The position numbers and the translations under genes were made by a program. A model generated the notes under the pieces. That model worked only from the letters and a program-made list of their open reading frames with translations. It did no database searches and was not told the origin of the DNA. A DNA stretch of 38,719 nucleotides from Nocardioidaceae bacterium. GTDB lineage: Bacteria; Actinomycetota; Actinomycetes; Propionibacteriales; Nocardioidaceae. The stretch lies in the NCBI GenBank assembly GCA_025934895.1, contig JAICWH010000015.1, positions 1 through 38,719 on the forward strand, in the 5' to 3' direction. Shown here one piece after another: positions 11,069 through 26,699 of this stretch (positions within the stretch are counted from its first letter, which is position 1; each line of letters opens with the position of its first letter).

Positions 11069-11074
11069 GAGCGA

Positions 11075-11104
11075 ACGCTATGCGGTACGTATGGCGTCGG
11101 TCAA
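11075..11104 (-). promoter_or_regulatory. Putative sigma70-type promoter of the leftward prpD gene, leaderless
   Basis: Read on the minus strand, a -35-like TTGACC (11099-11104) and a -10-like TAGCGT (11075-11080) are 18 bases apart. The -10 ends seven bases before the ATG at 11068, so transcription would begin at the start codon. This agrees with the missing Shine-Dalgarno. Confidence 0.5.
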
Positions 11105-11189
11105 GCGCAAGGGACACAGCACCAACCGGAGGAAGCGAATCCCTTCCCATATCGAGGGAGGAACCGTTAGGGTGGGCCTGCTCGAGAAC

Positions 11190-11206
11190 GTTTCTCCAAG
11201 CGAAAC
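11190..11206. promoter_or_regulatory. Putative IclR operator (site b)
   Basis: GTTTCT-CCAAG-CGAAAC, five of six arm positions paired, with the same spacing as the perfect palindrome at 11035-11051. It ends 13 bases before the ATG of the CoA-transferase gene, where a repressor would block transcription or ribosome access. Confidence 0.55.
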
Positions 11207-11219
11207 GGACCTGCCAACG

Positions 11220-12413: not shown

Positions 12414-13237
12414 GCGACTCCCGTGCCCTCGACCCGTTGCTCGCAGTCGTCGAGTCAGGCGTCGAGGTCGTGGACCTCGGTCGTCAGCTGCGAGTGGGGA
12501 TGCCGCAGTCGCCGAACCACCCGGCGTTCTGGCACACCCTGCCCCGTCGCCACGGCGACATGATTCGCACCGATGGCGGCAGCGCCGCCAACGACATGAT
12601 CACGACCGGCACGCACGTCGGCACTCACATCGACGCACTCGCACACGTGTCGCACGACGGAAAGATGTTCGGCGGAGTCGACGCCGAGGCCGCCGGCCGG
12701 GGCGGGAAGTATGACCAGCTGGGGGTCCACACGATTGCGCCGATGCTATGTCGAGGAGTGCTCCTCGACATCCCGGCCACCCGCGGCGTCTCCCGGTGCA
12801 TGGGTGGCGAAGAGATCACCGTCGACGATCTCGAGGCCGCGCTCAAGACCCAGGACGTCGAGGTCCGGCCGGGTGACGTGGTCCTGATTCGCAGCGGCTG
12901 GGGTCAGCTGTTCGATGAGGGCGAGCCCTATCTGGGTCGCACGAGTGGTGTCCCTGGTGTCGGCGAGGTCGGCGCGCAGTGGCTGGCAGACCATGGCGTG
13001 CGGGCCGTGGGCGCGGATACCATCGCCTTCGAGCGGTTGGCTCCTGGGGGCGGCCACACGCTGCTGCCGGCTCACCGCGTCCTGCTCGTCGAGAGTGGCA
13101 TATACATCGTTGAGGCGCTCGACCTCGAAGAGTTGGCCGCACGCCAGTGGTATCAGTTCACGTTCGTGCTCGTGCCGCTGAACATCTACGGAGCCACCGG
13201 GTCGCCGGTCCGCCCGGTCGCGGTGGTGGCGTCATGA
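12410..13237 (+). CDS. Cyclase-family metal-dependent hydrolase (kynurenine formamidase-like)
   Basis: A 275-residue protein of the Cyclase family (PF04199 type), whose members include kynurenine formamidase and isatin hydrolase and which open or hydrolyse cyclic or N-acyl amides. The metal motif HxGTHxDxxxH is complete: H69, G71-T72-H73, D75 and H79. Other marks are VDLGRQLRVGMPQSP, VLLDIPA, GDVVLIRSGWG and VGADTIAFE. The ATG at 12410 overlaps the CoA-transferase stop as ATGA, and its own stop overlaps the next start, so translation is probably coupled. An upstream extension of the frame only overlaps the previous gene. Beside an amidohydrolase it suggests a cyclic amide, imide or lactone substrate; this is inference. 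Confidence 0.85.
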   Translation: MSDSRALDPLLAVVESGVEVVDLGRQLRVGMPQSPNHPAFWHTLPRRHGDMIRTDGGSAANDMITTGTHVGTHIDALAHVSHDGKMFGGVDAEAAGRGGKYDQLGVHTIAPMLCRGVLLDIPATRGVSRCMGGEEITVDDLEAALKTQDVEVRPGDVVLIRSGWGQLFDEGEPYLGRTSGVPGVGEVGAQWLADHGVRAVGADTIAFERLAPGGGHTLLPAHRVLLVESGIYIVEALDLEELAARQWYQFTFVLVPLNIYGATGSPVRPVAVVAS

Positions 13238-14733
13238 GTCAGCCGACGCTTGCCCAACAACTGGCCTCCTTCGCTGCCAGTACGTCCTACGACGACCTGC
13301 CGGCGCCGGTCGTCGACAGTGTCAAGAGGCGGGTCCTGGACACGCTGGGAATCGCTGCCGCGGCCGCGCCGCTCGAGACAAGTCGCGCAGCGCGGCGCTG
13401 GGCCGCCTCCCAAGGGGGATTCGAGGGATCGTCGGCAGTTGGGGTCGAGCGGCGGCTCCCGGCCAACCTGGCTGCGTTCGTGAACGGAGTGCTCGCGCAC
13501 TCCCTCGACTACGACGACACACATCTACCGTCGGTCTTGCACCCGAGCGCGAGCGTCGTACCCGCCGCGCTCGCTGCAGCAGAGCGTCACGGCGCCGACG
13601 GTGAGCAGCTGATCCACGCCATCGCGGTCGGGCTCGAGACCTGCGTCCGGATCGGCATGGCCGGGTACGACGAACAGGCGAAGAACTCCACCTTCTTCGA
13701 GCACGGGCAGCATGCAACGTCGATCTGCGGCGCGATGGGTGGAGCGGTAGCGGCCAGCGTCATCACCGGCAGCGAGTCGGGGGTCCTGCACTCCCTCGGT
13801 GTGGCTGCGTCCATGGCCTCCGGGATCATCGAGGCAAACCGCACCGGAGGCACCGTCAAGCGGTTGCACTGCGGCTGGGCCGCGCATGCCGCGCTCTCCG
13901 CCGCCGAACTGGTGGCCGAAGGACTCACCGGTCCGCCGACGGTCCTCGAGGGCCGATTCGGCTTCTTCGAGGCGTGGCTCCACGGCAAGTTCGACGGGAC
14001 CGCGATCAGCGAGGGGCTCGGCTCCCACTGGCTCGTGCCCGACATCTTCTTCAAGCCCTATCCCGCGAACCACTTCACCCATTCTGCCGTGGACGCGGCG
14101 GCGGCACTTCGCCTCCAAGGGGTCACCCCTGACCGGATCGAGCGGCTGACGCTGGGCGTTCCGGGCCCCAACCACCGCACGATCGGCGAGCCGATCGAGG
14201 TCAAGCGCGCGCCGGAGACCGGGTACATGGCGCAGTTCAGCGGACCCTACGCCGTGGCCGTCGGGCTGTTCGGGGGCGGCGGACTCGGTGCCGCGCTCGA
14301 GGACTACACCGACCAGCTGGCCCAGGATCCGGAGCGGCGGGCACTGATGCAGAAGGTCGACGTCGTTGTCGACGAGCGCTGCACGCAGATCTTCCCCCGG
14401 CAGTTCCCGGCAGTGCTCACGGCGCGACTCACCGACGGGACGACCATCGTGGAGGAGGTGCTCACCAACCGTGGAGGCCCTGACCGACCGCTCTCGTTCG
14501 AGGAGCTTGCGACGAAGTTCCGGGACAATGTCGCTGCCGTGCTCCCCGGCCAGGACGCCGTGGGGCTGGAGAAGGCCTGCGACGAGCTCGACACCTGCAT
14601 CGACGTGGCCGCGATGCTGCGTCCACTCACCGCAGTGGACGGACCGACTGCCGTGCCCCTCCCTGTGGAAGCCGGACCGCAACGGACCCGACCCGCCGGC
14701 GGAGCCGCCAGCGGTGCCATCACCAAACCCTAG
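13234..14733 (+). CDS. MmgE/PrpD family protein (second copy)
   Basis: A 499-residue MmgE/PrpD protein, distinct in sequence from the copy at 9680-11068. Features in order: LAQQLASFAAS, VDSVKRRVLDTLGIAAAAAP, NGVLAHSLDYDDTHLPSVLHPSA (the conserved Asp-Asp-Thr-His active-site segment), GLETCVRIG, FFEHGQHATSICGAMG, and FFKPYPANHFTHSAVDAA. Start: ATG at 13234, coupled (ATGA) to the cyclase stop. The C-terminal tail of about 40 residues is rich in Pro/Ala/Gly and looks disordered. The two copies may act on successive or stereoisomeric intermediates; that is inference. Candidate reactions in the family are dehydration, decarboxylation or epimerisation of di- or tricarboxylic acids. Confidence 0.88.
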   Translation: MSQPTLAQQLASFAASTSYDDLPAPVVDSVKRRVLDTLGIAAAAAPLETSRAARRWAASQGGFEGSSAVGVERRLPANLAAFVNGVLAHSLDYDDTHLPSVLHPSASVVPAALAAAERHGADGEQLIHAIAVGLETCVRIGMAGYDEQAKNSTFFEHGQHATSICGAMGGAVAASVITGSESGVLHSLGVAASMASGIIEANRTGGTVKRLHCGWAAHAALSAAELVAEGLTGPPTVLEGRFGFFEAWLHGKFDGTAISEGLGSHWLVPDIFFKPYPANHFTHSAVDAAAALRLQGVTPDRIERLTLGVPGPNHRTIGEPIEVKRAPETGYMAQFSGPYAVAVGLFGGGGLGAALEDYTDQLAQDPERRALMQKVDVVVDERCTQIFPRQFPAVLTARLTDGTTIVEEVLTNRGGPDRPLSFEELATKFRDNVAAVLPGQDAVGLEKACDELDTCIDVAAMLRPLTAVDGPTAVPLPVEAGPQRTRPAGGAASGAITKP

Positions 14734-14745
14734 ATGAGGAACGGT

Positions 14746-16212
14746 ATGTCTAACTACGACCTGGTCATCCAGAACGCCCTTGTGGTGCGCCCCGAAGCCC
14801 ACTCCCCCGAACGTCTCGACGTCGGGGTGAAGGACGGAACATTCAGCGCCTTCGAGAACTCTATCGACGCCTCCCAAGCCTCGAAGGTCCTCGACGCTGA
14901 AGGCAGGCACCTCTTTCCGGGCGTCGTCGACGTGCACCAGCATTGGGGCATCTACAACGAGCTCGGCCAGGACGCGGACTCCGAGAGTCGCGCGTCCGCG
15001 CAGGGCGGCGTCACGTCGGGCATCACGTACATGCGGACCGGTGCTTACTACATGAACCGGACCGGTCCCTACAAGGAGGTCTTCCCCGACGTGCTCGCGG
15101 CGACGGAAGGCAAGGCCTTCATCGACTACGCCTTCCACGTCGCGCCGATCCTGCGCGAGCACATCGACGAGATCCCGATGATGATCGAGGAGTTCGGCGT
15201 ACCGTCCTTCAAGATCTTCATGTTCTACGGCAGCCACGGGCTCCACGGGCGGTCCTCGGACCAGGGCTCGTTCCTGATGATCCCGGAGGACCAGTCCTAC
15301 GACTATGCGCACTTCGAGTTCGTCATGCGGGGCATCGAGAAGGCGCGTGAGGAGTTCCCTGGCGACCGCGACCGGATCTCGCTGTCCTTGCACTGCGAGA
15401 CCGCCGAGATCATGCGTGCCTACACCAAGCTCGTCGAGCAGGAGGGCAGGCTGGCCGGGCTCGAGGCCTACAGCGCGTCTCGGCCACCGCACTCGGAGGG
15501 CCTCGCGATCACCATCGCGTCGTACCTGGCGCACGAGACCCAGCTGCCGAACATCAACCTGCTGCACCTCAGCTCGCGCAAGGCGGTCGAGGCCGCAATG
15601 ATGATGCAGGCGACGTTCCCGCACATCGACTTCCGCCGTGAGGTGACCGTGGGACACCTGCTCGCCGACTTCCACACCGCGAACCTGGGCGGCAAGGTGA
15701 ACCCCCCGCTGCGATCGCGTGAGGACGTCGAGACGCTGTGGGAGCACCTCCTCGCCGGTCACTTCTCCTGGGTCACCTCCGACCATGCCTGCTGCAAGGA
15801 GGAGACCAAGTTCGGGGAGCCGCGCGACGACGTGTTCGTCGCCAAGTCGGGCTTCGGCGGCACGGAATACCTGCTGCCCGGAATGATCTCCGAGGGGCGC
15901 AAGCGTGGCCTGTCGTACAACCGGATCGCGGAGCTGGTGTCGAAGAACCCTGCCGAGCGCTTCGGAATGAGCCACAAGGGTGACCTGACTGTCGGAGTCG
16001 ACGCGGACTTCTGTCTGGTCGACGACGACGTTGAGTACGTCGTTCGTGCGGCCGACTCGTTCTCCACGCAGGAGTACACCCCGTTCGAGGGCTTCGAGCT
16101 GACCGCGCGGGTCACCGACACCTTCTTGCGCGGCGAGCCAGTGTTCACCGACGGCCGGATCGTGGGAGACCCCCGCGGCCAGTTCGTTCGGCGCTCCGGC
16201 CCCGACGCCTGA
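14746..16212 (+). CDS. Cyclic amidohydrolase, dihydroorotase/hydantoinase/allantoinase-like
   Basis: A 488-residue TIM-barrel amidohydrolase. The binuclear-metal set is complete: H64 and H66 in VDVHQHWG, the carbamylated-Lys candidate K156 in PSFKIFM, H216 in LHCETAE, H274 in LLHLSSR and D346 in VTSDHACC. It then has the NPAERFGM and DADFCLVD tail of dihydropyrimidinase-type enzymes. This group opens cyclic amides such as hydantoins, dihydropyrimidines, allantoin or imides. I chose ATG 14746, with GAGGA about six bases upstream, over ATG 14734 directly after the previous stop. It ends the operon and faces the citE gene. Substrate not readable; unlikely to be pyrimidine biosynthesis because no pyr genes are near. 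Confidence 0.87.
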   Translation: MSNYDLVIQNALVVRPEAHSPERLDVGVKDGTFSAFENSIDASQASKVLDAEGRHLFPGVVDVHQHWGIYNELGQDADSESRASAQGGVTSGITYMRTGAYYMNRTGPYKEVFPDVLAATEGKAFIDYAFHVAPILREHIDEIPMMIEEFGVPSFKIFMFYGSHGLHGRSSDQGSFLMIPEDQSYDYAHFEFVMRGIEKAREEFPGDRDRISLSLHCETAEIMRAYTKLVEQEGRLAGLEAYSASRPPHSEGLAITIASYLAHETQLPNINLLHLSSRKAVEAAMMMQATFPHIDFRREVTVGHLLADFHTANLGGKVNPPLRSREDVETLWEHLLAGHFSWVTSDHACCKEETKFGEPRDDVFVAKSGFGGTEYLLPGMISEGRKRGLSYNRIAELVSKNPAERFGMSHKGDLTVGVDADFCLVDDDVEYVVRAADSFSTQEYTPFEGFELTARVTDTFLRGEPVFTDGRIVGDPRGQFVRRSGPDA

Positions 16213-16293: not shown

Positions 16294-17169
16294 TCAGCGT
16301 GGGGCGCGGTCGAGAGTCTCTCGTGCTCCCCGGATGACGGCGGCGTCGATGAGCTGCCCCCGGGCGTCCGTCGTCACCCCGCCCGCAGCGGCTTCGAACC
16401 GCGCCACCACGTCCGCCGCTGCCGAGACCTCCGCGGCCGTGGGCGCGAAGACGTCATTGATCACGGGGACCTGACCGGGATGGATCGCCGTTCGCGAGCG
16501 GAATCCGAGATCGAACAGGTGACGGCTGGTCCTGGCGAAGGAGTCGAGATCGTGGAAGTCGGTCGAGGTCGGGGCGACGGGGGCCTGCCGTCCCGCGGCG
16601 GCGCAGTGCACCACGACCTGGCTGCGCAGCGCATCGAGTGCGGCCGCCGAGCCGGTGGACCGGGTCATGCGCAGATCAGCGAGCAGATCGACCTCACCGA
16701 TTCCCAAGGTCGTCAACCGCGGCAGGCTCGCCACGGCGGCGAGTTCCAGCAGCGCGGAGGCGTTCTCGACGAGTCCCACGACCTGGACGGTGCCTGGCAC
16801 CATGCCGGTGCTGCGCTCGAGGTCGTCGAGAAGCCGGCTGGCCTCGGCCAGCGAGCTCGATGAGCACTTGGCTAGGAAGATGCCGCTCAGCGACGGCTGC
16901 ACGGCGGTGGCCAGGTCGTCACCCAGCGTGTCGGCATTCACGCGGACCCAGGTTCGGGCCGCGTGGGAGCCAGCGCCGCCGTCCTCGTCGAGCCACGACC
17001 GCACCGACCGTCGCGCCTCATCCTTGAGTCGCACCGGGACGGCGTCCTCCAGGTCGAGGACGACGGCGTCCGTGGCACCGGCGGCCGCCTTGGCGAAGAG
17101 GTCGGTCCTCGTGGCTGGGACATAGAGGAAGGACCGCGGCAACATGGTGCTCCCCGCAGCGCTAGTCAT
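16294..17169 (-). CDS. HpcH/HpaI aldolase/citrate lyase family protein, CitE-like acyl-CoA lyase
   Basis: A 291-residue CitE-like TIM barrel. Relatives cleave or form 3-hydroxyacyl-CoA esters (malyl-, citramalyl- or beta-methylmalyl-CoA). Visible marks: RSFLYVPATR at the N-terminus, DAVVLDLEDAVP with the metal-binding acid region, VRVNADTLGDD, GIFLAKCSS, VVGLVENASALLEL (active-site Glu), GIGEVDLLADL and RTAIHPGQVPVIND. Its ATG (17167-17169) overlaps the iclR stop as ATGA, so the two are coupled. With a CoA-transferase in the divergent operon, a final C-C cleavage giving acetyl- or propionyl-CoA plus an oxoacid is a fair inference. Substrate not determined. Confidence 0.85.
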   Translation of the reverse strand: MTSAAGSTMLPRSFLYVPATRTDLFAKAAAGATDAVVLDLEDAVPVRLKDEARRSVRSWLDEDGGAGSHAARTWVRVNADTLGDDLATAVQPSLSGIFLAKCSSSSLAEASRLLDDLERSTGMVPGTVQVVGLVENASALLELAAVASLPRLTTLGIGEVDLLADLRMTRSTGSAAALDALRSQVVVHCAAAGRQAPVAPTSTDFHDLDSFARTSRHLFDLGFRSRTAIHPGQVPVINDVFAPTAAEVSAAADVVARFEAAAGGVTTDARGQLIDAAVIRGARETLDRAPR

Positions 17170-17966
17170 CGACTCGTCCCTCCGGAAAGCGCTGCGGTGA
17201 TGTCCTGGGCAGCTCGCATCACCAGGCGCACGTGGTCCTCGTGGCCCTCTTCACCGTAGCGGAAGACGGGCCCGGAAGAACTGATCGAGCCCGTCACGTT
17301 GCCCGAGGCGTCGAAGAAGGGTGCAGCGATGGAGGCCGCCCCGGTGTTGCGCTCGTTGTGGGAGACGCCGTACCCCCGCTCCCGGATTCGGGCGAGGTCC
17401 GCCCGGTAGGCATCCTCGTCGAAGGCCGACCGTAACTCGCCGAGCTGGCGCACCGACTCAGCGGTGAAGGCTGGAGGCAGAAAGGCGAGGATCACCCGAC
17501 TGGATGCGCCGGAGTGCAGCGGGAAGCGAGTGCCGAGCTCCACCACCATCTTCACCTCCTGCGGGCTCTCGTACTGGTCCAGGTAGATGCGGTGATCGCC
17601 TACGAGCACGGACAGAGTGGTGGTCTCGCGAGTGTCGTCGCGCAACCTCTTGAGGATCGGAGAGGCCAGCGTCCTCAGGTCCACCTGACTCCACGCCTTG
17701 GTGGCCAAGGTCGTTGCGGCCGGGCCGAGCATGTACGTCGACCCCCCGGGCAAGACCTGCAGGAGGGAGCGGGAGGTCAGCGACCGCAGGATCCGATGTA
17801 CCACCGCCTTGCTCAGCATCAACGTACGTGCGATCTGGGACACACCCAGCGCGGTGTTCGACTGCGCAACCAGCAGCAGCACGTCGGCGACTCGATCGGC
17901 CGCCTCGGTTCCGCCGGTGCTCTCGGCTCGTGGCATCCCGGGTCTGTCTACCAAGACAAGCTCCAT
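17166..17966 (-). CDS. IclR family transcriptional regulator
   Basis: A 266-residue regulator. An N-terminal winged helix-turn-helix occupies about residues 24-85 (ALGVSQIARTLMLSKAVVHRILRSL), followed by the IclR effector domain with FPLHSGASSRVILAF and RERGYGVSHNERNTGAASIAAPFFD, where an aromatic or organic acid usually binds. Start: ATG at 17966, with ATG 17936 as an alternative. It lies upstream of and coupled to citE. A GTTCCG-N5-CGAAAC site ends at 17991, with its near edge nine bases from the ATG, as expected for autoregulation. I propose it controls the four transcription units of this island through the repeated site. Confidence 0.9.
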   Translation of the reverse strand: MELVLVDRPGMPRAESTGGTEAADRVADVLLLVAQSNTALGVSQIARTLMLSKAVVHRILRSLTSRSLLQVLPGGSTYMLGPAATTLATKAWSQVDLRTLASPILKRLRDDTRETTTLSVLVGDHRIYLDQYESPQEVKMVVELGTRFPLHSGASSRVILAFLPPAFTAESVRQLGELRSAFDEDAYRADLARIRERGYGVSHNERNTGAASIAAPFFDASGNVTGSISSSGPVFRYGEEGHEDHVRLVMRAAQDITAALSGGTSR

Positions 17967-18174: not shown

Positions 18175-19437
18175 ATGAAGCCAAGGCCACCCTCGATCAA
18201 GAAGGTGTCTGGAGTCGTTGCCGTCGTGCTCGCGTCCGCGACCCTTGCTGCGTGTAGCTCGTCGGGCTCGTCCGACAGCAAGAGCGGCTCGGGCGGCTCA
18301 GGCAAGGCCATCCTGATCGGATCTGTGCACCCGCTGACCGGTGCCCTCGCCGGCGCGGGCGGTCTGATGAACGACGGAGCCAAGATGGCAGTCGCGGACA
18401 TCAACAAGGCCGGCGGCATCAAAGCCCTCGGCGGCGCGAAGCTTAAGCTCGACGCGGGGGACAGTCAGGGCTCTGCCGAGACAGGCCAGAGCGAAGGACA
18501 GCGTCTCATCCAGGACGGCGCCGTCGCTCTCGTGGGCACCTACCAGAGCGACGTGACCCAAAACGTTGCCGCTGTGTCCGAGCGGTCCCACGTACCCATG
18601 GTGATCGACGTCGCCGTGGACGACCAGATCTTGCAGCAGGGCTACAAGTACACCTTCCGAATCCAGCCCAACGCCACCGAGATGGGCACTTCGGGTGCCG
18701 ACTCGCTTGCAGCGATGGGTCAAGCGAACGGCAGCCCCGTGAAATCGGTTGCCTACATCCACATCGAGGGCTCGTTCGGCCAAAGCGTGTTTGACGCCTT
18801 CAAGAAGGAGGCACAGAAGAAGGGCATCAACGTCCTCAAGGAGATCACCTACCCCGCTACGAACTTCACCGACGCGACCACACAGGTGAAGGAGGCCGCC
18901 TCGGTCAAGCCTGACGTCATCGTCGACACCGGCTACTTCCCCGACAGCCTGTTGGTCGCGAAGTCCGTGCAGGCTCTGAAGCCGAACATCAAGGCGCTGT
19001 ACGGCATCGCCAATGGAGCGTTCGACGACAACTCCTTCCCCGCGACTGCTGGCACAGCCGGCACGGACGTACTGAGCGCGAACTATCACTACGCCGCGAC
19101 CAGCAGCAAGGTGGTCGACATCCGCAAGCGCTTCCAGCAACAGTTCCACAAGTCGATGGAGACGGCCTCCGTGCTGTCCTACCAGGCCGTCGACGTGATC
19201 GCGCAGGCGCTCGAGGACGGCAAGAGCAGCGACCCCACGAAGCTCCGGGATGCGATCGCCAAGGTGTCGGTGAGCAACCCCCTGCTCGCGTTCGACGGGC
19301 CGATCACGTTCGACCCGACGGGCCAGAACAAGAACGCCACTGTGATCGTCATGCAGGTCCAGGGCGGCAACGTGGAACAGGTCTTCCCCACCAAGTTCAA
19401 GACCGCCAAGCTCGTGTTCCCCGTCCCCAACAAGTGA
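18175..19437 (+). CDS. ABC transporter substrate-binding lipoprotein, branched-chain amino acid type
   Basis: A 420-residue secreted lipoprotein of the Leu/Ile/Val-binding (type 1 periplasmic) family. A lipoprotein signal peptide has basic residues, a hydrophobic core and the lipobox L24-A-A-C27; a Ser/Gly-rich linker follows. The mature part begins ILIGSVHPLTGALAGAGGLMNDGAKMAVADI, the usual start of this family, and includes LIQDGAVALVGTYQSDVTQNVAAVSE and YIHIEGSFGQSVFDAFK. GAAAGG lies about ten bases before the ATG. First gene of a nine-gene operon with both permeases and both ATPases. Such systems import amino acids, amides, urea or aromatic and dicarboxylic acids; context favours the compound degraded by the island. 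Confidence 0.92.
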   Translation: MKPRPPSIKKVSGVVAVVLASATLAACSSSGSSDSKSGSGGSGKAILIGSVHPLTGALAGAGGLMNDGAKMAVADINKAGGIKALGGAKLKLDAGDSQGSAETGQSEGQRLIQDGAVALVGTYQSDVTQNVAAVSERSHVPMVIDVAVDDQILQQGYKYTFRIQPNATEMGTSGADSLAAMGQANGSPVKSVAYIHIEGSFGQSVFDAFKKEAQKKGINVLKEITYPATNFTDATTQVKEAASVKPDVIVDTGYFPDSLLVAKSVQALKPNIKALYGIANGAFDDNSFPATAGTAGTDVLSANYHYAATSSKVVDIRKRFQQQFHKSMETASVLSYQAVDVIAQALEDGKSSDPTKLRDAIAKVSVSNPLLAFDGPITFDPTGQNKNATVIVMQVQGGNVEQVFPTKFKTAKLVFPVPNK

Positions 19438-19453
19438 CCGTGGACTGATCGAC

Positions 19454-20464
19454 ATGACCCTCTCCACCTCTCAGGCGTCAGCCGATCCCCCAGCAGCGGA
19501 GACCCGGGCGTTCTCACTTGCCGACGCCCGGCTCCCGATCGCCGTCACGGGGGCGGTCGTCCTCGCGATCGTGCTGGTGTACACGGTTGGTGGCCGGGAC
19601 CCCGGGCTGGTCACTCAGTCCATCGTGACCGGCCTGCTTCTGGGCGGCGTCTACGCATTGGTCTCAGTTGGCTTGACACTGATCTTCGGAGTGCTGGGGA
19701 TCGTCAACTTCGCCCAGGGGTCGATGCTCACCCTCGCGATGTTCCTGGTCTACGTGATGGGCCACTCCTTCGGGATACCGGTCTACGTGGCAACCGTTGT
19801 TGCTATCCCGATCATGTTCGGGTTCGGCTGGTTGGTGCAGCTGCTCCTGCTCAACAAGCTCACCATCTCGGGCAACGAGAACGGCCCCCTGCTGATCACG
19901 CTCGGTCTGTCGCTTCTCATCGTGAACGTGCTGCTGATGGTCTTCGGTGGTCGACCGCTCTCAGTGCCAGGGACTGTCGACGGGTCCTTCACGGTACTTG
20001 GTGCGCTCGTGTCGTACGAGCGGTTGATCGCCTTCGGAGGTGCGCTCCTGGTGGCGCTCCTCCTTACCCTGGCGCTGAGGAAGACCTCCCTCGGACTGGC
20101 GATCCGTGCTGTGTCCTCGAACAGTCAGGGCGCTGCTCTCGTCGGGGTGAACGTCGGCCGGATCTATGCCCTCACGTTCGCGATCGGTTCGGCCTGCGTG
20201 GCGGTGGCCGGCGGGCTTGTGGCCCCCTTCATCAGCCTGACGCCGTCAGTGGGTGAGCAGTTCACCATCCTCGCCTTCGTCATCGTCGTCCTCGGCGGTC
20301 TAGGCAGTGTTGTGGGAGCCACCGTCGGAGGACTGGTCATCGGGCTAGTGCAGACGGTCGGCGCGCTCTACCTCCCTGGGACCGGTTCCCTGATCTTGGT
20401 GTTCGCCGTCTTCGTGCTAGTCCTCTTCTTCAGGCCCCAGGGAATGTTCGGAGCTAAGCAGTGA
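19454..20464 (+). CDS. ABC transporter permease, LivH-like
   Basis: A 336-residue membrane protein with about eight or nine predicted helices, the first subunit of the Liv-type translocation channel. Typical marks are GLLLGGVYALVSVGLTLIFGVLGIVNFAQGSM near residue 60-90 and, near the C-terminus, FVIVVLGGLGSVVGATVGGLVIGLVQT. Its first 30 residues are polar and longer than in E. coli LivH. It follows the binding protein by 16 bases, and its stop overlaps the livM start as GTGA. No substrate information lies in the permease itself. Confidence 0.9.
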   Translation: MTLSTSQASADPPAAETRAFSLADARLPIAVTGAVVLAIVLVYTVGGRDPGLVTQSIVTGLLLGGVYALVSVGLTLIFGVLGIVNFAQGSMLTLAMFLVYVMGHSFGIPVYVATVVAIPIMFGFGWLVQLLLLNKLTISGNENGPLLITLGLSLLIVNVLLMVFGGRPLSVPGTVDGSFTVLGALVSYERLIAFGGALLVALLLTLALRKTSLGLAIRAVSSNSQGAALVGVNVGRIYALTFAIGSACVAVAGGLVAPFISLTPSVGEQFTILAFVIVVLGGLGSVVGATVGGLVIGLVQTVGALYLPGTGSLILVFAVFVLVLFFRPQGMFGAKQ

Positions 20465-21513
20465 CCGACATGGTCGACAAGCAGGTCCACTCGGCCGCCG
20501 ATCGCGATGATCCACGCCTGAAGGACCGGTCGAGGTCACGCGCCTACCTGGCGCTCCTGGTCGTCGCCGTGGTGCTGGCGCTGCTCCCCCTCGGCATGTC
20601 CGACCGCGTCGAGACCATTGCGGTGCGGACGCTCATCTTCGCGATCATGGCTGTGGCCTGGAACCTCATGAGCGGGTACGGCGGGCTCTTCAGCTTCGGT
20701 CATGCCGCGTTCTTCGGGATCGGCGCATACACCGACGCCTACCTGGTCGTCGATCACAGCGTCTCTCCGTGGATCGCGATGATCGTCGGCGCCCTACTGG
20801 CGGCGGCAGCAGGTGGCGCGATCGCCTTTCTGTGCCTGCGGTACCGACTGGCGGGGGCCTACTTCGCCCTTGCCACGTTCGCCTTCGCAATGATGTTTCT
20901 GCTGGTCGTGCAGAACCTCGAAATCCTGCACAAGACCGAGGGGTTCAACCTCCCGATCCTGCCGACGTACTCCTGGAAGATGATGCAGTTCGCGCAGGGC
21001 AGCAGGAACTACTACTGGATCCCGCTGGGGATCCTTGTCGTCGCTCTCGCGGGCACGATCGCCTTCGTCGGCTCGCGTGCTGGCCAGTACGCGCAGGCCA
21101 TCCGCGACGATGAGGTCGCGGCGGCATCGCTCGGGATCAACGCGCTGCGCTATCGGCTTGTCACCGTGGCGCTCAGCTGCGGCCTGACTGCGGTCGCCGG
21201 CGCGTACTACACCCAGTACTACTTCTTCGTGGGCCCCGACCAGGGGTTCGGCTCCGGGGTCTCTATCGAGGCCATGATCCCGGCGGTGATCGGTGGTATC
21301 GGCACCGTCTGGGGGCCGGTCATCGGTGCGCTGGTCGTTGGTCCACTCGCCGAGGGGATCACCAGCATCCTACGAAACCCACCGCAGGTCCTGAGCTTCC
21401 TGCAGGGACTAACCGGCCTTGACGTTGCGGTGTACGCCGTGCTGCTGATCGTCATCGTGCTCTTCATGCCGAAGGGCATCTACGGGACTCTTCGCGACAG
21501 GTGGAGGAAATGA
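20461..21513 (+). CDS. ABC transporter permease, LivM-like
   Basis: A 350-residue membrane protein with about ten predicted helices, the second Liv-type channel subunit. Features: AVAWNLMSGYGGLFSFGHAAFFGIGAY, AIRDDEVAAASLGIN (the cytoplasmic loop that contacts the ATPases), and MIPAVIGGIGTVWGPVIGALVVGPL near the end. It starts at a GTG (20461) that overlaps the LivH stop (GTGA), and its TGA overlaps the ATG of the next gene. Coupled translation should keep the subunits balanced. Confidence 0.9.
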   Translation: MTDMVDKQVHSAADRDDPRLKDRSRSRAYLALLVVAVVLALLPLGMSDRVETIAVRTLIFAIMAVAWNLMSGYGGLFSFGHAAFFGIGAYTDAYLVVDHSVSPWIAMIVGALLAAAAGGAIAFLCLRYRLAGAYFALATFAFAMMFLLVVQNLEILHKTEGFNLPILPTYSWKMMQFAQGSRNYYWIPLGILVVALAGTIAFVGSRAGQYAQAIRDDEVAAASLGINALRYRLVTVALSCGLTAVAGAYYTQYYFFVGPDQGFGSGVSIEAMIPAVIGGIGTVWGPVIGALVVGPLAEGITSILRNPPQVLSFLQGLTGLDVAVYAVLLIVIVLFMPKGIYGTLRDRWRK

Positions 21514-22229
21514 CGATCCTGGAGGTCAAGGGTCTCGTCAAGTCGTTCTCCGGGCTCACCGCCGTCAACGACATCAACCTCGAGGTGCGCGAGCACGAGT
21601 TCCTCGGGATCGTCGGCCCCAATGGCGCCGGAAAGACGACGCTCTTCTCCCTGCTCTCCGGCCAGCTGCCTCCCAGCGCAGGGAAGGTGGTGTTCGAGGG
21701 CAGGGACATCACCGGATGGAGCGCCAACAAGGTCGCTGCCACGGGCCTGGTGCGGACGTTCCAGCTGATGCGGCCCTTCGAGAGCATGTCGGTGCTCGAC
21801 AACGTCGCGATCGCTTCACACGCACGGCACCGCTCGCGGCGAGCCGCACGCCGCCACGCCCTCGGGGTGATCGAGCGCGTCCAGCTCGAGCGCTACGTCA
21901 ACTCCCTGTCGGGGAGCCTGCCCACGGCCGGCCTCAAGCGGCTCGAGCTCGCCCGCGCCCTGGCCTTGGAGCCGCGGCTCCTACTTCTCGACGAGGTCCT
22001 GGCGGGCCTCGTCCCCGCTGAGCGCGCGCCGATGATCGAGCTGCTGCGCGAGCTTCACACCGACGGCGTGACGGTCATGCTCATCGAGCACATCATGACC
22101 GCCGTGCTGGCCCTGTCCGAGCGACTGCTGGTGATGCACGAGGGCGCCCAACTCGCGCTCGGGGAGCCGCGGGCGGTCGTGGACGACCCGGTCGTGATCG
22201 AGGCCTATCTCGGAGAGGACTACGCATGA
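21510..22229 (+). CDS. ABC transporter ATP-binding protein, LivG-like
   Basis: A 239-residue cytoplasmic ATPase. Walker A is GPNGAGKT (36-43) and Walker B is LLLLDE. The signature helix is unusual: LPTAGLKRLELARAL replaces the LSGGQ-type motif, and the residue after Walker B is Val rather than Pro (DEVLAGL). I have seen this pattern in a subgroup of LivG-like proteins, so it is probably natural rather than damage. Start: ATG 21510 with GGAGG four bases upstream; the GTG at 21501 is less likely. It overlaps LivM and LivF genes at both ends (ATGA). It works with the LivF-like ATPase to drive uptake. Confidence 0.9.
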   Translation: MTILEVKGLVKSFSGLTAVNDINLEVREHEFLGIVGPNGAGKTTLFSLLSGQLPPSAGKVVFEGRDITGWSANKVAATGLVRTFQLMRPFESMSVLDNVAIASHARHRSRRAARRHALGVIERVQLERYVNSLSGSLPTAGLKRLELARALALEPRLLLLDEVLAGLVPAERAPMIELLRELHTDGVTVMLIEHIMTAVLALSERLLVMHEGAQLALGEPRAVVDDPVVIEAYLGEDYA

Positions 22230-22930
22230 TCCTCGAGGTCCAGCAGTTGCACGCGGGGTATCGCCGTCTCGAAATCCTTCACGAGCTCTCGATGCATCTC
22301 GACAAGAACGAGATCGTCTCCTTGATCGGCGCGAACGGCGCAGGCAAGACGACCACGCTCCGGGCGATTGCGGGGCTGATCGGTGTGAACCGTGGGCGAA
22401 TCCTGTTCGAGGGTGAGGAAGTGCAGAACAAGCGTCCGGACCGCGTCGTGCGAGCCGGACTTGTACACGTCGCCCAGGACCGCGCCCTGTTCGGCAATCT
22501 CGAGGTCTGGGAGAACCTCGAGATGGGGGCCTACACCCAGTCGCGTTCGACGATCCGCTCCTCGCTCGACGAGGTCTTCGACCTTTTCCCGATCCTTGCC
22601 GAGCGGCGCCACCAGAAGGCCGGAACGATGTCCGGTGGGCAGCAGCAGATGCTCGCGATCGGACGCGCACTTATGGCCCGGCCCCGATGTCTGACCCTCG
22701 ATGAGCCGTCCGTCGGATTGGCACCGAACCTCGTTGCGCAGGTCCTGCAGGCGATCACCGCCATCCGCGACACCGGAGTCACGGTGCTGATCGTCGAGCA
22801 GAACGCGAAGCAGGCGCTGGCGATCTCGGACCGTGCCTACGTGATCGAGAACGGGTCGATCGTGTTTGACGGCAGGGGGGCCGAGCTCATCGACGATCCA
22901 CGCGTGCGCCAGGCCTACCTCGGAGGCTGA
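22226..22930 (+). CDS. ABC transporter ATP-binding protein, LivF-like
   Basis: A 234-residue ATPase of the Liv-type transporter. Walker A is GANGAGKT (35-42), the signature is MSGGQQQMLAIGRAL, Walker B is CLTLDEPSVGLAPN, and the family tail VEQNAKQALAISDRAYVIENG is present. All catalytic motifs look intact, in contrast to the altered signature of its LivG-like partner, so one of the two composite ATP sites has an unusual signature. The ATG overlaps the LivG stop as ATGA. About 80 bases separate it from the next gene, the first enzyme gene of the same operon. Confidence 0.92.
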   Translation: MILEVQQLHAGYRRLEILHELSMHLDKNEIVSLIGANGAGKTTTLRAIAGLIGVNRGRILFEGEEVQNKRPDRVVRAGLVHVAQDRALFGNLEVWENLEMGAYTQSRSTIRSSLDEVFDLFPILAERRHQKAGTMSGGQQQMLAIGRALMARPRCLTLDEPSVGLAPNLVAQVLQAITAIRDTGVTVLIVEQNAKQALAISDRAYVIENGSIVFDGRGAELIDDPRVRQAYLGG

Positions 22931-23008
22931 GCCACCATTTCAACAAACGACATCGCCAAGGCACCCTCGCCGCCCTTCGGAGGCGCGAGGCCTTCGAGAG
23001 GAAGAACC

Positions 23009-23650
23009 GTGCACTTGCTCGCCATCACTCCGATCCACGTCGACGACGAGGAGCTCACACGTCGCCAGCAGCGGTACGACCGGCTGGCACCAGCGGGCGT
23101 GACGGTTCACCTAGAGGACCTCGGGAAAGAGTCCGAGGTGCCTCGAGCACTCGAGACGGCCGACGACATCACGGCTTCGGAGTCGGCGCTCGTGAAGCGT
23201 TTCCGCCGGGCCGATGCCGAAGGGTTCGACGGGTTCCTGCCCGATTGCGTGCTGGACCCAGTCGTGGACCACGAGGCATCCCTGACCCGGCCGGTGTTCG
23301 GCATCGCCCGGTTGACGGCGCACTTCCTCGGGGGATTCGGCCTCGCGGTGGGAGCGGTCGCCCGCAACGAGGCGATCGCCCACGAGCTCGACCGCAAGCT
23401 GAAGAGCTATGGCCTATGGGCCGCGCGGCAGACGGACGTGCTCGATCTGTCCGTCGAGGACATCGCCGACGAGGCGACGTGGTCTGCAGCAGTCGAGCGC
23501 ACCGCCAGGTCACTGCCGTGCGACACCGTCATCAATGCATGTTCGGCGGTCGACATCGTTTCCCGTGACGTCGGACCGGCGCTCGTGGACCCGACGTGGG
23601 TTGCGCTGCAGATGATCGGGCTGCGGGCGGCGACCGGACCGCGGCGATGA
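23009..23650 (+). CDS. Asp/Glu/hydantoin racemase superfamily protein (racemase or maleate-isomerase-like)
   Basis: A 213-residue protein with the layout of the cofactor-free Asp/Glu racemase fold. Two Cys sit where the acid/base pair is expected: C80 in FDGFLPDCVLDP and C178 in DTVINACSAVD. Between them is RPVFGIARLTAHFLGGFGLAVGAVARN, matching the central strand-helix of hydantoin racemases. The family includes amino-acid and hydantoin racemases, maleate isomerase and arylmalonate decarboxylase. Start: GTG 23009 with AGAGGAAG upstream. It follows the transporter in the same direction, and its stop overlaps the next ATG. Which of these reactions it catalyses cannot be told from sequence. Confidence 0.7.
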   Translation: MHLLAITPIHVDDEELTRRQQRYDRLAPAGVTVHLEDLGKESEVPRALETADDITASESALVKRFRRADAEGFDGFLPDCVLDPVVDHEASLTRPVFGIARLTAHFLGGFGLAVGAVARNEAIAHELDRKLKSYGLWAARQTDVLDLSVEDIADEATWSAAVERTARSLPCDTVINACSAVDIVSRDVGPALVDPTWVALQMIGLRAATGPRR

Positions 23651-25008
23651 GTGTCGAGGGTCCCGACCTCGTTGTCGCTGGAGCGGGCGGCGGGCTCGTC
23701 GGTGCGCTGCGGGCAGCCTCGCTAGGCCTCTCTGTGGTGGTCCTCGAGCGCAACAAGCATTTCGCGGCCGGGAACAACACCGCCATGTCCACCGCGATGT
23801 TGCCGGGCGCCGGCAGTCGATGGCAGCAGGCGGCAGGCGTGCAGGACTCCGCAGAGAAGTTCCTCGCCGACATCATGGCGAAGACCCACGGCGAGGTCAA
23901 TGGGGTGCTGGCCGAGGCCCTGGCAGGCGTCAGCGCTCGACTTGTCGAATGGATGGCCGACGAGCTCAGGCTGCCGCTGTCGCTGGTGACCGACTTTCCC
24001 TATCCCGGGCATTCGGCCTTCCGCTGCCACACCGTCCCTGGCCGGGCGGGACGGAACCTGCTGGCCGGCCTCGTGACCGCCGCGCGGCGCTCTGAACTGA
24101 TCGACCTCATGGTCCCGGCGCGCTTGATCGACGTCGTGCCCGCCAAGGACGGCGTCGCGGAAGCTGTGGTAGAAACCCCCGGCGGCGAGGAACGCATCCC
24201 CACCCGGGCGGTGCTCCTGGCAACCAACGGATTCGGTGCCGATGCCGCTCTCGTCGCCCAGCATATTCCCCAGATCGCTCGCGCGGTCTATCACGGGAGT
24301 GAGGGCTCCACCGGTGACGCACTCCGGATCGGGGCACGACTGGGCGCAGCCACGGAGTTCCTCGATGCGTACCAAGGCCACGCGGCCCTCGCTATGCCGG
24401 CTGCAACGCTCGCCGGCTGGGCGACCGTCATGCACGGCGCCTTCCTGGTGAACCGCAATGGCCGACGCTTCGGTGACGAGACGACTGGCTACTCCGAGTA
24501 CGCCGCAGAAGTGCTGAAGCACGCCGACGGGCAAGCGTGGATCATCCTCGACCGGCGGGTCGACCAGGCCTGCCGCGAGTTCCAGGACTACCAGGACACG
24601 GTGGCCTCTGGCTGCGTCCGCTGGGCCGAGGAGGTGGATGGCCTCGCGGAGCAGACAGGCATCGACGCGGACGCGCTGCGGGCGACGGTGGAGCAGGCTC
24701 GGTCGAGCGCGCAGGGAGCACCAGACGCGTTCGGCAGAACCTACTGGGAGGCGCCGCTGGTGCCGCCGTACGGCGTGATCTCGGTTCAGCCGGCGCTCTT
24801 CCACACCCAGGGCGGGCTTCGGGTGGACGGTCACGCGCGTGTCCTCCGCGAGGACGGGACGCCGGTGCCCGGGGTCTACGCCTCCGGTGGTGCCGCTGCC
24901 GGCATCTCGGGTCACGGTGCCGGGGGCTACCTCGCCGGCAACGGCCTCCTGCCGGCGTTCGGCCTGTCCTTCCTCGCCGCTGAGGACGTGGCGGCGACTC
25001 GTGGGTGA
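23647..25008 (+). CDS. FAD-dependent oxidoreductase, fumarate reductase/succinate dehydrogenase flavoprotein type
   Basis: A 453-residue flavoprotein. The N-terminal dinucleotide fold has GAGGGLVGA (12-20) and the ribose-binding VVVLERNKHFAAGNNT. Later marks are VLLATNGFG, VNRNGRRFGDE, HTQGGLRVDGHARV and SGGAAAGISGHGAGGYLAGNGLL, as in soluble fumarate reductases, 3-ketosteroid dehydrogenases and tricarballylate dehydrogenase. It should oxidise a CH-CH bond or reduce a C=C next to a carbonyl or carboxylate. Start: ATG at 23647 coupled (ATGA) to the racemase-like gene. No covalent-FAD His or cytochrome partner was seen. Together with the PrpD and CoA enzymes it suggests a dicarboxylate or tricarboxylate intermediate, by inference only. 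Confidence 0.83.
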   Translation: MSVEGPDLVVAGAGGGLVGALRAASLGLSVVVLERNKHFAAGNNTAMSTAMLPGAGSRWQQAAGVQDSAEKFLADIMAKTHGEVNGVLAEALAGVSARLVEWMADELRLPLSLVTDFPYPGHSAFRCHTVPGRAGRNLLAGLVTAARRSELIDLMVPARLIDVVPAKDGVAEAVVETPGGEERIPTRAVLLATNGFGADAALVAQHIPQIARAVYHGSEGSTGDALRIGARLGAATEFLDAYQGHAALAMPAATLAGWATVMHGAFLVNRNGRRFGDETTGYSEYAAEVLKHADGQAWIILDRRVDQACREFQDYQDTVASGCVRWAEEVDGLAEQTGIDADALRATVEQARSSAQGAPDAFGRTYWEAPLVPPYGVISVQPALFHTQGGLRVDGHARVLREDGTPVPGVYASGGAAAGISGHGAGGYLAGNGLLPAFGLSFLAAEDVAATRG

Positions 25009-25579
25009 GCAGGCCCCTGATGCGAAGCGTGACGCAGATTCGGACCTCGCACGAGCGCGAATCACTGCCCAGGACTTCGTGCGCAGCGAAGCCGGCTTTG
25101 CCCAGCTGACCACGCTCGACAGGGCCGGCTTTCCCGTTGCGCGGTCCATGACGGCGTTCCTCGAGGACGACTGGTCGGTGAGCCTGATCCAGCGGCGTGT
25201 CCACGCGCGGATCGCCCAGCTGCAACGCAATGACCACGCTCTGGTGACCTGGGTAGGCACGCCGGCACCGGGCGCCACCAACGAGCGGCCTCATGTCTTC
25301 GACATAGGACGGCTCCCTCCGCGTGCGGTCTACCTGCGCGGCCGAGTGGTCTTCATGGGTGCGCGCTGGACCGAGTTGCGCTACCGCGAGCAGATCGAGA
25401 GCCAGCGAGCGCTAGGCCACACAGGTGCGCCCGTGCGTACCCCGGCGCAGGTGGAGGGAGAGCTCGTCGGGGTCCGGTTGATCCCCGTGCGGATCCGCCT
25501 CGAAGGCTTCGGGGAGGGCGCGCAGGCGTTCGAATGGGCAGTCCTCAGCGAATCCGACATCCCAGGAGCAGTTCCATGA
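25001..25579 (+). CDS. Pyridoxamine 5'-phosphate oxidase-like (FMN split-barrel) protein
   Basis: A 192-residue protein of the FMN-binding split-barrel superfamily. It opens with a helix (ARARITAQDFVRSEAGFAQLTTLDRAGFPVARSMTAF), then the barrel strands (WSVSLIQRR, HALVTWVGT, RAVYLRGRVVFMG) and a C-terminal VRLIPVRIRLEGFGEG. I chose the GTG at 25001, overlapping the previous stop by eight bases; the longer upstream frame only overlaps the flavoprotein gene. Its stop overlaps the next ATG. It could bind FMN, F420 or haem and act as a reductase or oxidase. In the operon it may serve the flavoprotein step. Family by pattern, no specific function. Confidence 0.65.
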   Translation: MGEQAPDAKRDADSDLARARITAQDFVRSEAGFAQLTTLDRAGFPVARSMTAFLEDDWSVSLIQRRVHARIAQLQRNDHALVTWVGTPAPGATNERPHVFDIGRLPPRAVYLRGRVVFMGARWTELRYREQIESQRALGHTGAPVRTPAQVEGELVGVRLIPVRIRLEGFGEGAQAFEWAVLSESDIPGAVP

Positions 25580-25929
25580 CGATCAAGACGATCCTCGGCT
25601 ACGACATCGCGCCCGGTGTGACCCCGGAGGACTACGAGGCGTGGTTGTTCGAGGTGCACGCCCCGGACTTGCTGGCCAATCCCTACTTGGACAAGCTCGT
25701 CTTCAACAAGGTCCTCCGTCCGGTGAGGCAAGCCTCCGGTGGGACGGCGCCGGTTCCCGAGGGGCAAACCTTCTACCGGATCGCTGAGATGCACTACGCA
25801 GACGATGAGGCTTATGCGAACTACCTCGCGTGGTTTGACGAGCATCCAATGCCCGCCGAGCGCGGGCCGGGCGGCCGCACCGACTTCCGGTTCTACCTCG
25901 TCACCGAAAGCACCGAAGTCACTCGTTGA
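25576..25929 (+). CDS. EthD-like dimeric alpha/beta-barrel protein
   Basis: A 117-residue protein with the ferredoxin-like alpha/beta pattern of EthD/dimeric alpha-beta barrel proteins: ILGYDIAPGVTPEDYEAWLFEVHAPDLLANPYLDKLVFNKVL, then FYRIAEMHYADDEAYANYLAWF, and a final FRFYLVTES strand. Family members act as small isomerases, monooxygenases or accessory proteins in catabolic clusters. The ATG at 25576 overlaps the previous stop (ATGA), and it is the last gene of the operon, followed by a palindromic hairpin. No catalytic residue can be assigned. Confidence 0.6.
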   Translation: MTIKTILGYDIAPGVTPEDYEAWLFEVHAPDLLANPYLDKLVFNKVLRPVRQASGGTAPVPEGQTFYRIAEMHYADDEAYANYLAWFDEHPMPAERGPGGRTDFRFYLVTESTEVTR

Positions 25930-25949
25930 CGAGCACCAGGTAGGCTCAG

Positions 25950-25966: not shown

Positions 25967-25995
25967 ATCACTTCAGCGACGGTCGCGCGCGGCCT

Positions 25996-26652: not shown

Positions 26653-26699
26653 CGTCGCTCCCTGTGATGTGGATGTACTGCCATGCTACCCGATTGTTG

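What the first reader, a model, noticed from the sequence alone, without database searches (positions are those of the whole stretch)
23009..25929. Four-gene enzyme tail translationally coupled behind an ABC importer
Racemase-like, fumarate-reductase-like, FMN split-barrel and EthD-like genes overlap each other by 4-8 bases. Such tight coupling suggests a stoichiometric set, possibly a complex handling one redox-isomerisation step. The flavin pair (FAD plus possible FMN) could pass electrons between them.
Basis: partly seen in the sequence, partly recalled or inferred. Interest (0 to 1): 0.5.

Follow-up and report, generated by a model that had tools for sequence, protein, structure and literature searches.

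The report
Part of a ring-compound breakdown cluster
The four overlapping genes are real, but rather than one enzyme machine they look like a few steps of a larger, shared but so far unidentified bacterial pathway that imports and takes apart a small nitrogen-containing ring compound.

Summary
In detail: four genes at 23009-25929 overlap by 4, 8 and 4 bases. The importer is not coupled to them (78-base gap). Overlaps are the local norm: 9 of 12 same-strand junctions of the island.

The complex reading is not supported. Among 80 actinobacterial loci with this flavoprotein the racemase is seen in 62, the split-barrel and EthD genes in 9. The real unit is larger: Liv importer, IclR, racemase, flavoprotein, hydantoinase-type amidohydrolase, cyclase-family hydrolase, two MmgE/PrpD proteins, CaiB CoA-transferase, HpcH lyase. 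One distant genome has these plus EthD in one stretch, with no split barrel seen.

The racemase model lies nearest allantoin and hydantoin racemases (Z 22.8, 19.2); both cysteines are conserved. The amidohydrolase keeps its metal ligands. The flavoprotein has Tyr where fumarate reductase has the catalytic Arg (82 of 82). The split barrel's nearest folds bind FMN, F420 or haem, so its cofactor is open.

Best reading: core and accessory steps of an uncharacterised catabolic pathway for a chiral cyclic ureide or imide, ending in CoA-dependent C-C cleavage. Substrate unknown. Split barrel and EthD are optional add-ons linked to this flavoprotein.

The parts
9680..11068 (-). MmgE/PrpD family protein (PrpD1)
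   Evidence: relatives in 53 of 80 flavoprotein loci; no NCBIfam match; name taken from an annotated relative (34% identity)
11052..12413 (+). CaiB-type CoA-transferase
   Evidence: NCBIfam succinate-glutarate CoA-transferase 245.6 bits, below cut-off 750; 64 of 80 loci
12410..13237 (+). cyclase-family metal hydrolase (kynurenine formamidase / isatin hydrolase kin)
   Evidence: 51 of 80 loci; ATGA overlap with CaiB
13234..14733 (+). MmgE/PrpD family protein (PrpD2), nearest solved kin cis-aconitate decarboxylase and IDS-epimerase
   Evidence: 46 of 80 loci
14734..16212 (+). hydantoinase/allantoinase-type cyclic amidohydrolase (HydA)
   Evidence: all six metal-ligand residues kept in 64 of 64 sequences; 63 of 80 loci
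16294..17169 (-). HpcH/CitE-type C-C lyase (nearest NCBIfam RipC, below cut-off)
   Evidence: 70 of 80 loci
17166..17966 (-). IclR-family regulator
   Evidence: 71 of 80 loci at 35% identity or more, which may include other IclR genes
18175..22930 (+). ABC importer LivK, LivH, LivM, LivG, LivF
   Evidence: LivK by Pfam, the others by eye; each subunit in 46-48 of 80 loci
23009..23650 (+). Asp/Glu/hydantoin-type racemase with Cys80 and Cys178
   Evidence: PF01177 above cut-off; model nearest allantoin racemase Z 22.8; each Cys in 62 of 63 sequences, the other a gap
23647..25008 (+). FAD-binding_2 oxidoreductase without a haem domain, Tyr282 in place of the fumarate-reductase Arg
25001..25579 (+). 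split-barrel protein (PNPOx-like), cofactor unknown
   Evidence: AlphaFold2 model and fold match Z up to 14.2; 9 of 80 loci
25576..25929 (+). EthD-like small protein
   Evidence: PF07110 in 7 of 8 orthologues at E<=0.01; 9 of 80 loci

Best explanation
The tail is the distal part of a catabolic island for a small chiral cyclic amide of the ureide/hydantoin/imide kind. Shown: the genes, their linkage, their families and their conserved catalytic residues. Inferred: (1) the Liv-type importer brings the compound in; (2) the racemase interconverts enantiomers at the ring carbon next to the carbonyl by two-base proton transfer between Cys80 and Cys178; (3) the FAD enzyme moves a hydride to or from a C-C bond activated by a ring or side-chain carbonyl, with a Tyr (282) where fumarate reductase uses Arg; (4) the dinuclear-metal amidohydrolase opens the ring; (5) the cyclase-family hydrolase removes the remaining amide or carbamoyl group; (6) the two MmgE/PrpD proteins (de)hydrate or epimerise the carbon skeleton; (7) CaiB loads CoA and the HpcH lyase splits the product into an acyl-CoA and an oxo-acid. 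The split-barrel and EthD proteins are optional accessories tied to this flavoprotein: most likely a flavin-, F420- or haem-assisted side reaction and a small isomerase or helper. Separate enzymes in sequence, not one complex.
For: 80 actinobacterial loci share the larger set around the flavoprotein. G735 holds EthD (57% identity), HpcH (45%), CaiB (58%), cyclase (51%), PrpD2 (54%), LivK (50%), PrpD1 (38%), racemase (47%), flavoprotein (56%), HydA (60%) and IclR (44%) in one stretch, with further Liv genes and an SDR by eye. A haloarchaeal megaplasmid holds the flavoprotein (43%), a HydA-type gene (31%), CaiB (46%), two MmgE/PrpD, IclR and Liv genes. Remote flavoprotein relatives sit with hydantoinase A/B and cysteine-hydrolase (isochorismatase-type) genes, in one case also two genes annotated as Asp/Glu racemases. 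The racemase model is closest to allantoin and hydantoin racemases, well above aspartate racemase (15.4), maleate isomerase (15.2), arylmalonate decarboxylase (14.5) and glutamate racemase (13.9); fungal OpaE stands between at 17.9. HydA metal ligands 64 of 64; racemase Cys 62 of 63; flavoprotein H122, R126, H128, H245, Y282, H386 82 of 82. The flavoprotein is followed directly by HydA (-22 to +75 bases) in 50 of the 63 loci with both.
Against: No substrate is known, and none of the proteins scanned reaches a curated NCBIfam cut-off among the rows shown. HydA was not seen in 17 of 80 loci and the racemase not in 18 of 80 (some are contig ends). Within the fetched stretch 8 of the 9 split-barrel/EthD loci lack HydA, which does not fit a single fixed pathway. 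In the five annotated plasmid regions read, the window's racemase finds no match at E 1e-3, and HydA, CaiB and HpcH find none in the Sulfitobacter and Neorhizobium regions. A shared fold with allantoin racemase does not show activity. The seed of the 80 loci was the flavoprotein, so its own frequency there is 80 by construction. H128, invariant in 82, is replaced in the G735 flavoprotein.
Confidence: 0.55

Rival explanations
1. One reading: the four proteins form a stoichiometric complex for one redox-isomerisation step, the split barrel handing electrons to or from the FAD enzyme.
For: Tight overlaps. In the class sample the split-barrel and EthD genes occur only in flavoprotein-bearing genomes. 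Exactly this gene order also in G419 (L005), L057 and L059.
Against: 71 of 80 flavoprotein loci show neither gene, and 12 of 14 non-own flavoprotein genomes of the class sample have no hit for either. The genes are rearranged or on opposite strands in 7 of 9 loci. No split barrel was seen in the G735 stretch. One split-barrel copy lies outside any such cluster. Overlaps are general in the island.
Confidence: 0.08
2. The island degrades a dicarboxylic or tricarboxylic acid (tricarballylate, aconitate or itaconate type); the flavoprotein is a tricarballylate-type dehydrogenase, PrpD2 an aconitate decarboxylase, CaiB/HpcH the itaconate-type end, and the racemase a cis-trans isomerase.
For: TcuA profile matches the flavoprotein (116.8 bits), RipC the lyase (140.6 bits), and cis-aconitate decarboxylase is the nearest solved kin of PrpD2. 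A Shinella region pairs a HydA-type gene with aconitate hydratase and MmgE/PrpD genes.
Against: All far below cut-offs (369 and 375 bits). Both Arg that grip the dicarboxylate in fumarate reductase are missing by alignment. The racemase is nearer allantoin racemase than maleate isomerase. The amidohydrolase and the hydantoinase A/B and cysteine-hydrolase neighbours of remote kin point to C-N bonds.
Confidence: 0.17
3. The tail is an ordinary operon of unrelated enzymes swept together by transcription economy, with no shared substrate.
For: Overlapping junctions are the local norm.
Against: The same set is kept together in rearranged orders across actinobacterial families and in part in an archaeon, which gene economy alone does not explain.
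Confidence: 0.1

Closest known systems
Allantoin racemase (AllR, HpxA) and hydantoin racemase of the Asp/Glu racemase superfamily
   Same: fold over the whole chain (Z 22.8, 21.6, 19.2), two conserved cysteines
   Different: 16-18% identity, no curated NCBIfam match above cut-off, company of CoA-transferase and lyase genes
Flavocytochrome c / fumarate reductase, urocanate reductase, 3-ketosteroid dehydrogenase (FAD_binding_2)
   Same: domain and His residues at the fumarate-reductase positions 365 and 504 (numbering recalled; alignment)
   Different: no haem domain, Tyr in place of Arg402, Arg544 missing, scores below every curated cut-off shown
Hydantoinase/allantoinase/dihydropyrimidinase family
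   Same: allantoinase and D-hydantoinase are the nearest solved kin; metal ligands kept
   Different: 240 bits against an allantoinase cut-off of 631 and 191 against 650 for hydantoin-5-propionate amidohydrolase
Split-barrel proteins (PNPOx, F420-dependent FDOR, HugZ/NohD haem proteins)
   Same: fold, Z 12-14
   Different: below the PNPOx_N and F420 FDOR cut-offs; cofactor unknown
Fungal nicotinate pathway HxnM/HxnN (cyclic imide opening, then amide hydrolysis; PMC9304392, passages read)
   Same: logic of ring opening by an imidase followed by amide hydrolysis
   Different: by the paper HxnM's closest structural homologue is HpPgdA, related to the allantoinase PuuE; no CoA stage described in the passages read

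Membership tests
Asp/Glu/hydantoin racemase (PF01177) | profile score above the curated cut-off | tested here: met
   38.5 vs 31 bits
Asp/Glu/hydantoin racemase (PF01177) | two catalytic cysteines (recalled as the family's two-base mechanism) | tested here: met
   C80 and C178 each in 62 of 63 sequences, the other a gap; 18 of 18
allantoin/hydantoin racemase | racemises allantoin or a hydantoin | not testable with these tools
   fold proximity only
fumarate reductase / flavocytochrome c (TIGR01813) | profile score above the curated cut-off | tested here: not met
   205 vs 285.45 bits
fumarate reductase / flavocytochrome c (TIGR01813) | catalytic Arg402 and substrate Arg544 (residue roles and numbers recalled) | tested here: not met
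   alignment with 1qo8: Tyr282 and no Arg; Tyr in 82 of 82
3-ketosteroid dehydrogenase | equivalog cut-off | tested here: not met
   137.4 vs 789 bits
3-ketosteroid dehydrogenase | catalytic Tyr equivalent to Tyr318 of KstD1 (PMC5348764, passages read) | not tested
   a Tyr stands at the fumarate-reductase Arg position; its equivalence to Tyr318 was not aligned, as the own genome gave no match over the KstD cut-off to align with
tricarballylate dehydrogenase TcuA | equivalog cut-off | tested here: not met
   116.8 vs 369 bits
PNPOx / split barrel (PF01243) | profile score above the curated cut-off | tested here: not met
   22.2 vs 28.1 bits; 9 of 11 orthologues match at E<=0.01
PNPOx / split barrel (PF01243) | split-barrel fold | tested here: met
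   model mean pLDDT 86.1, Z up to 14.2 over 133-141 residues
PNPOx / split barrel (PF01243) | binds FMN | tested here: inconclusive
   near-tied neighbours bind FMN, F420 or haem
F420-dependent FDOR (TIGR03618) | profile score above the curated cut-off | tested here: not met
   15 vs 79.05 bits; the genome does have CofD, 395 vs 257 bits
EthD (PF07110) | profile score above the curated cut-off | tested here: not met
   20.5 vs 22 bits for the window protein; 7 of 8 orthologues match at E<=0.01, best 7.1e-06
hydantoinase/allantoinase | HxH, carboxylated Lys, two His, Asp metal ligands (recalled) | tested here: met
   64 of 64
hydantoinase/allantoinase | curated cut-off of allantoinase, dihydropyrimidinase or hydantoin-5-propionate amidohydrolase | tested here: not met
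   239.9 vs 631, 172.2 vs 393, 191.1 vs 650 bits

The most novel reading that the evidence does not exclude
A widespread catabolic pathway not yet described, shared by many Actinomycetota, in part by a haloarchaeon and in looser variants by Alphaproteobacteria, in which a chiral cyclic ureide or imide is racemised, changed at a C-C bond by a Tyr-type FAD_binding_2 enzyme, opened by a hydantoinase-type enzyme and sent through MmgE/PrpD, CaiB and HpcH enzymes into central metabolism. In some lineages an EthD protein and a split-barrel protein with an unknown cofactor add a further step.
Probability: 0.45. Interest if true: 0.6.

Novelty: new variant of a known kind. Interest (0 to 1): 0.4.

Why it matters
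If right, a large set of genes in actinobacteria, which would be annotated piecemeal as fumarate reductase, racemase, dihydroorotase or citrate lyase, would belong to one pathway with one substrate. Finding it would assign a function to about ten gene families at once and correct a misleading fumarate-reductase label. The four-gene complex idea itself adds little once the wider cluster is seen.

Tried and rejected
Four-gene complex: rejected as the default because two of the four genes were not seen in 71 of 80 loci and are rearranged in 7 of the other 9. Dicarboxylate reductase: weakened by the missing Arg residues. Maleate cis-trans isomerase and arylmalonate decarboxylase for the racemase: both lie about 8 Z units below allantoin racemase in the same search, and arylmalonate decarboxylase has a single catalytic Cys (recalled). 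F420 dependence of the split barrel: not excluded, since CofD is present. Isonicotinate, tricarballylate and cyclic-imide leads were looked for in print (listings only, plus passages of one paper) without a matching cluster. Four searches for the cluster's gene combination gave nothing on it (two listed three unrelated or general papers). That is absence from the searched open library only. In the arylmalonate decarboxylase survey (PMC4996985, term search) the words hydantoinase, PrpD, gene cluster and isocitrate lyase do not occur. A search for fumarate-reductase residue numbers found no paper. Plasmid searches with the split barrel and EthD gave no match. Of the plasmid hits of the flavoprotein (53 records) and HydA (100 records) I read five regions; the Shinella one has no relative of the flavoprotein. 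A sequence search of solved structures with the split-barrel alignment gave nothing convincing, and EthD matched only a short stretch of chalcone isomerase at E 0.0012. The split barrel was found in none of 38 nearest relatives besides the own genome. No terminator-like site was found on the + strand in 17900-26900; the sigma-70-type scan is uninformative here.

L035, L040, L041 and L042 are close relatives, so the 9 loci are not 9 independent events; the tree needs 4 changes, at least 2 forced (quick tree, 25 of 82 inner branches open). In one search the three plasmid outgroup rows were not counted. EthD alignment A5 used 8 of the 11 orthologues then known (window, G419 and the 9 loci); L034, L035 and L042 were left out. 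A6 used 36 rows (30 of the 80 loci, the window, L005 and 4 plasmid loci). A7 used 18 rows (16 of the 62 loci with a racemase, the window and L005). The counts rest on the best hit per locus above identity thresholds that I set.
Full report
What was checked. The window lies in an actinobacterial draft genome of 3.9 Mb in 247 contigs (the phylum is inferred from its relatives). On the + strand at 23009-25929 there are four genes whose ends overlap by 4, 8 and 4 bases. The flavoprotein begins at ATG 23647 rather than at the mechanical ORF start 23596, because its relatives share the N-terminus from there. The importer's last gene ends at 22930, 78 bases before the racemase start, which has its own ribosome-site-like GAGAGGAAG. 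So the tail is coupled within itself but not to the importer. Overlap is general in this island: 9 of the 12 same-strand junctions from CaiB to EthD overlap by 4 or 8 bases. The tightness therefore carries no special message about stoichiometry.

What the four proteins are. The racemase matches Asp/Glu/hydantoin racemase above the Pfam cut-off; the flavoprotein matches FAD_binding_2 strongly; the split barrel and the EthD-like protein fall just under their Pfam cut-offs, but 9 of 11 and 7 of 8 orthologues match at E<=0.01. NCBIfam places the flavoprotein nearest flavocytochrome c, but at 205 bits against a cut-off of 285, and far below every equivalog shown. Aligned to flavocytochrome c3 (1qo8), it lacks the haem domain, keeps the two His, has Tyr282 where the catalytic Arg402 stands, and has no counterpart of Arg544 (residue roles and numbers recalled). 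H122, R126, H128, H245, Y282 and H386 are invariant in 82 of 82 actinobacterial sequences (80 loci, window, G419); the more distant G735 copy keeps Y282 but not H128. The Tyr recalls the 3-ketosteroid dehydrogenases, in which Tyr119 and Tyr318 take the proton (PMC5348764, passages read), but I did not align the two.

The racemase model (mean pLDDT 92.4) is nearest allantoin racemase (5lg5 Z 22.8, rmsd 2.4 over 206 residues; 3qvj Z 21.6) and hydantoin racemase (2eq5 Z 19.2), followed by fungal OpaE (17.9), aspartate racemase (15.4), maleate isomerase (15.2), arylmalonate decarboxylase (14.5) and glutamate racemase (13.9). Each cysteine is kept in 62 of 63 sequences, the other showing a gap. The split-barrel model (mean pLDDT 86.1) matches split barrels with Z up to 14.2, but near-tied neighbours carry FMN, F420 or haem. 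The genome has CofD, so F420 is probably available and no cofactor can be named.

The real unit. One scan of bacterial and archaeal genomes with the flavoprotein alignment gave 155 relatives, of which the best 80 loci were kept. Around them the window's own upstream genes recur: IclR in 71 of 80, HpcH lyase 70, CaiB 64, HydA 63, racemase 62, PrpD1 53, cyclase 51, importer subunits 46-48, PrpD2 46; the split barrel and EthD in the same 9; the window's downstream GntR and MFS in none (best hit per locus above identity thresholds that I set). Because the loci were seeded on the flavoprotein and stretches are limited to 10 kb on either side, the neighbours may be undercounted. Racemase and flavoprotein are same-strand neighbours (-13 to +53 bases) in 47 of the 62 loci with both, on opposite strands in 8, and outside that range in the other 7. 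The flavoprotein is directly followed by HydA (-22 to +75 bases) in 50 of 63. The order in the window (racemase, flavoprotein, split barrel, EthD) recurs in G419, L057 and L059. In five further loci EthD and split barrel are divergent from the flavoprotein, and in two EthD follows the flavoprotein while the split barrel lies apart.

Less biased tests. In 394 genomes of the class (own included), the split barrel was found in 3 at E<=1e-10, EthD in the same 3 at E<=1e-6 and the flavoprotein in 15 at E<=1e-90. Leaving the own genome out, 2 of 14 flavoprotein genomes have the pair and 0 of 379 others do (Fisher p=0.0012). In a phylum sample EthD was found in 2 of 386 genomes, own included. The other one, G735, has EthD beside HpcH, CaiB, cyclase, PrpD2, LivK, PrpD1, racemase, flavoprotein, HydA and IclR, each confirmed by BLASTP at 38-60% identity, with further Liv genes and an SDR by eye; no split barrel was seen by eye in the ORF lists of the 37 kb read (smallest ORFs listed 110-160 aa). 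In another phylum sample the split barrel was found in 2 of 376 genomes, own included; the other copy, G593, lies in a different context and looks divergent or damaged. That is a result against strict linkage. On the flavoprotein tree the pair needs 4 changes, at least 2 of them forced. So the two genes are optional and prefer this flavoprotein; they are not part of an obligate four.

Wider kin. Five annotated plasmid regions were read. A Rhodococcus gordoniae plasmid carries flavoprotein, HydA, CaiB, IclR, HpcH, cyclase and MmgE/PrpD together, next to hydantoinase A/B genes. A Halorubrum megaplasmid carries the flavoprotein (43%), a HydA-type gene (31%), an isochorismatase-family hydrolase, CaiB (46%), an HMG-CoA-lyase gene, LeuCD-type genes, two MmgE/PrpD, IclR and Liv genes. 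In Sulfitobacter and Neorhizobium plasmids, flavoprotein kin sit with hydantoinase A/B, cysteine hydrolase and an isocitrate-lyase-family or oxaloacetate-decarboxylase gene, the latter also with two genes annotated as Asp/Glu racemases. The Shinella region, found through HydA, has no flavoprotein relative. Against the reading: the window's racemase has no match at E 1e-3 in any of the five regions. The common thread, as I read it, is C-N hydrolysis of a ring amide, followed by a (de)hydratase and a C-C lyase.

How it most likely works. Shown: linkage, families, and conserved catalytic residues including all six HydA metal ligands in 64 of 64 sequences. Inferred: import, racemisation at the ring carbon, flavin-dependent change of an activated C-C bond, ring opening by HydA, removal of the second amide or carbamoyl group by the cyclase-family enzyme, skeleton processing by MmgE/PrpD proteins, CoA transfer by CaiB and cleavage by HpcH. 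The substrate is not known. Racemase and HydA point to a ureide or hydantoin; the dicarboxylate-type back end points to an imide or a carboxylated ring. The chemistry of the split barrel and EthD proteins remains open. An unexplained point is that 8 of the 9 split-barrel/EthD loci show no HydA in the fetched stretch, against 62 of 71 others that do, while the window, G419 and G735 have HydA.

Literature. Searches for the gene combination found no paper describing it. The fungal nicotinate pathway, in which an imidase opens a ring imide and an amide hydrolase follows, is the closest logic found (PMC9304392, passages read). These statements hold for the open library searched only.

Verdict. The idea of one stoichiometric complex is not supported. 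The genes belong to a broader, conserved and so far unassigned catabolic cluster, which is more interesting than the four-gene tail alone.

Noticed in passing
   Followed up: partly
L034, L035, L037, L040-L042, L049, L057: Eight of the nine split-barrel/EthD loci show no HydA gene in the fetched stretch, against 62 of 71 other loci that do. Several are close relatives or short contigs, so this may be chance or replacement.
   Followed up: no
   Followed up: no
L034:11682-12542 and L037:11782-12588: A second, different protein of 268-286 aa that looks like an Asp/Glu-racemase-type protein follows the flavoprotein/EthD genes; family judged by eye only.
   Followed up: no
L089 (Halorubrum ezzemoulense megaplasmid): An archaeal version of part of the cluster with LLM-class oxidoreductase, NTF2-like and SDR genes beside the flavoprotein.
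   Followed up: partly
window 3232-8084 (-): Sugar-transporter-like MFS protein, a large glycosyl-hydrolase-65-like protein and a PfkB-like kinase (names by eye).
   Followed up: no
window 25996-31284: GntR regulator, shikimate-transporter-like MFS protein, then transketolase-like halves and an SDR (by eye). The GntR and MFS genes do not recur near the flavoprotein in 80 loci at the identity thresholds used.
   Followed up: partly
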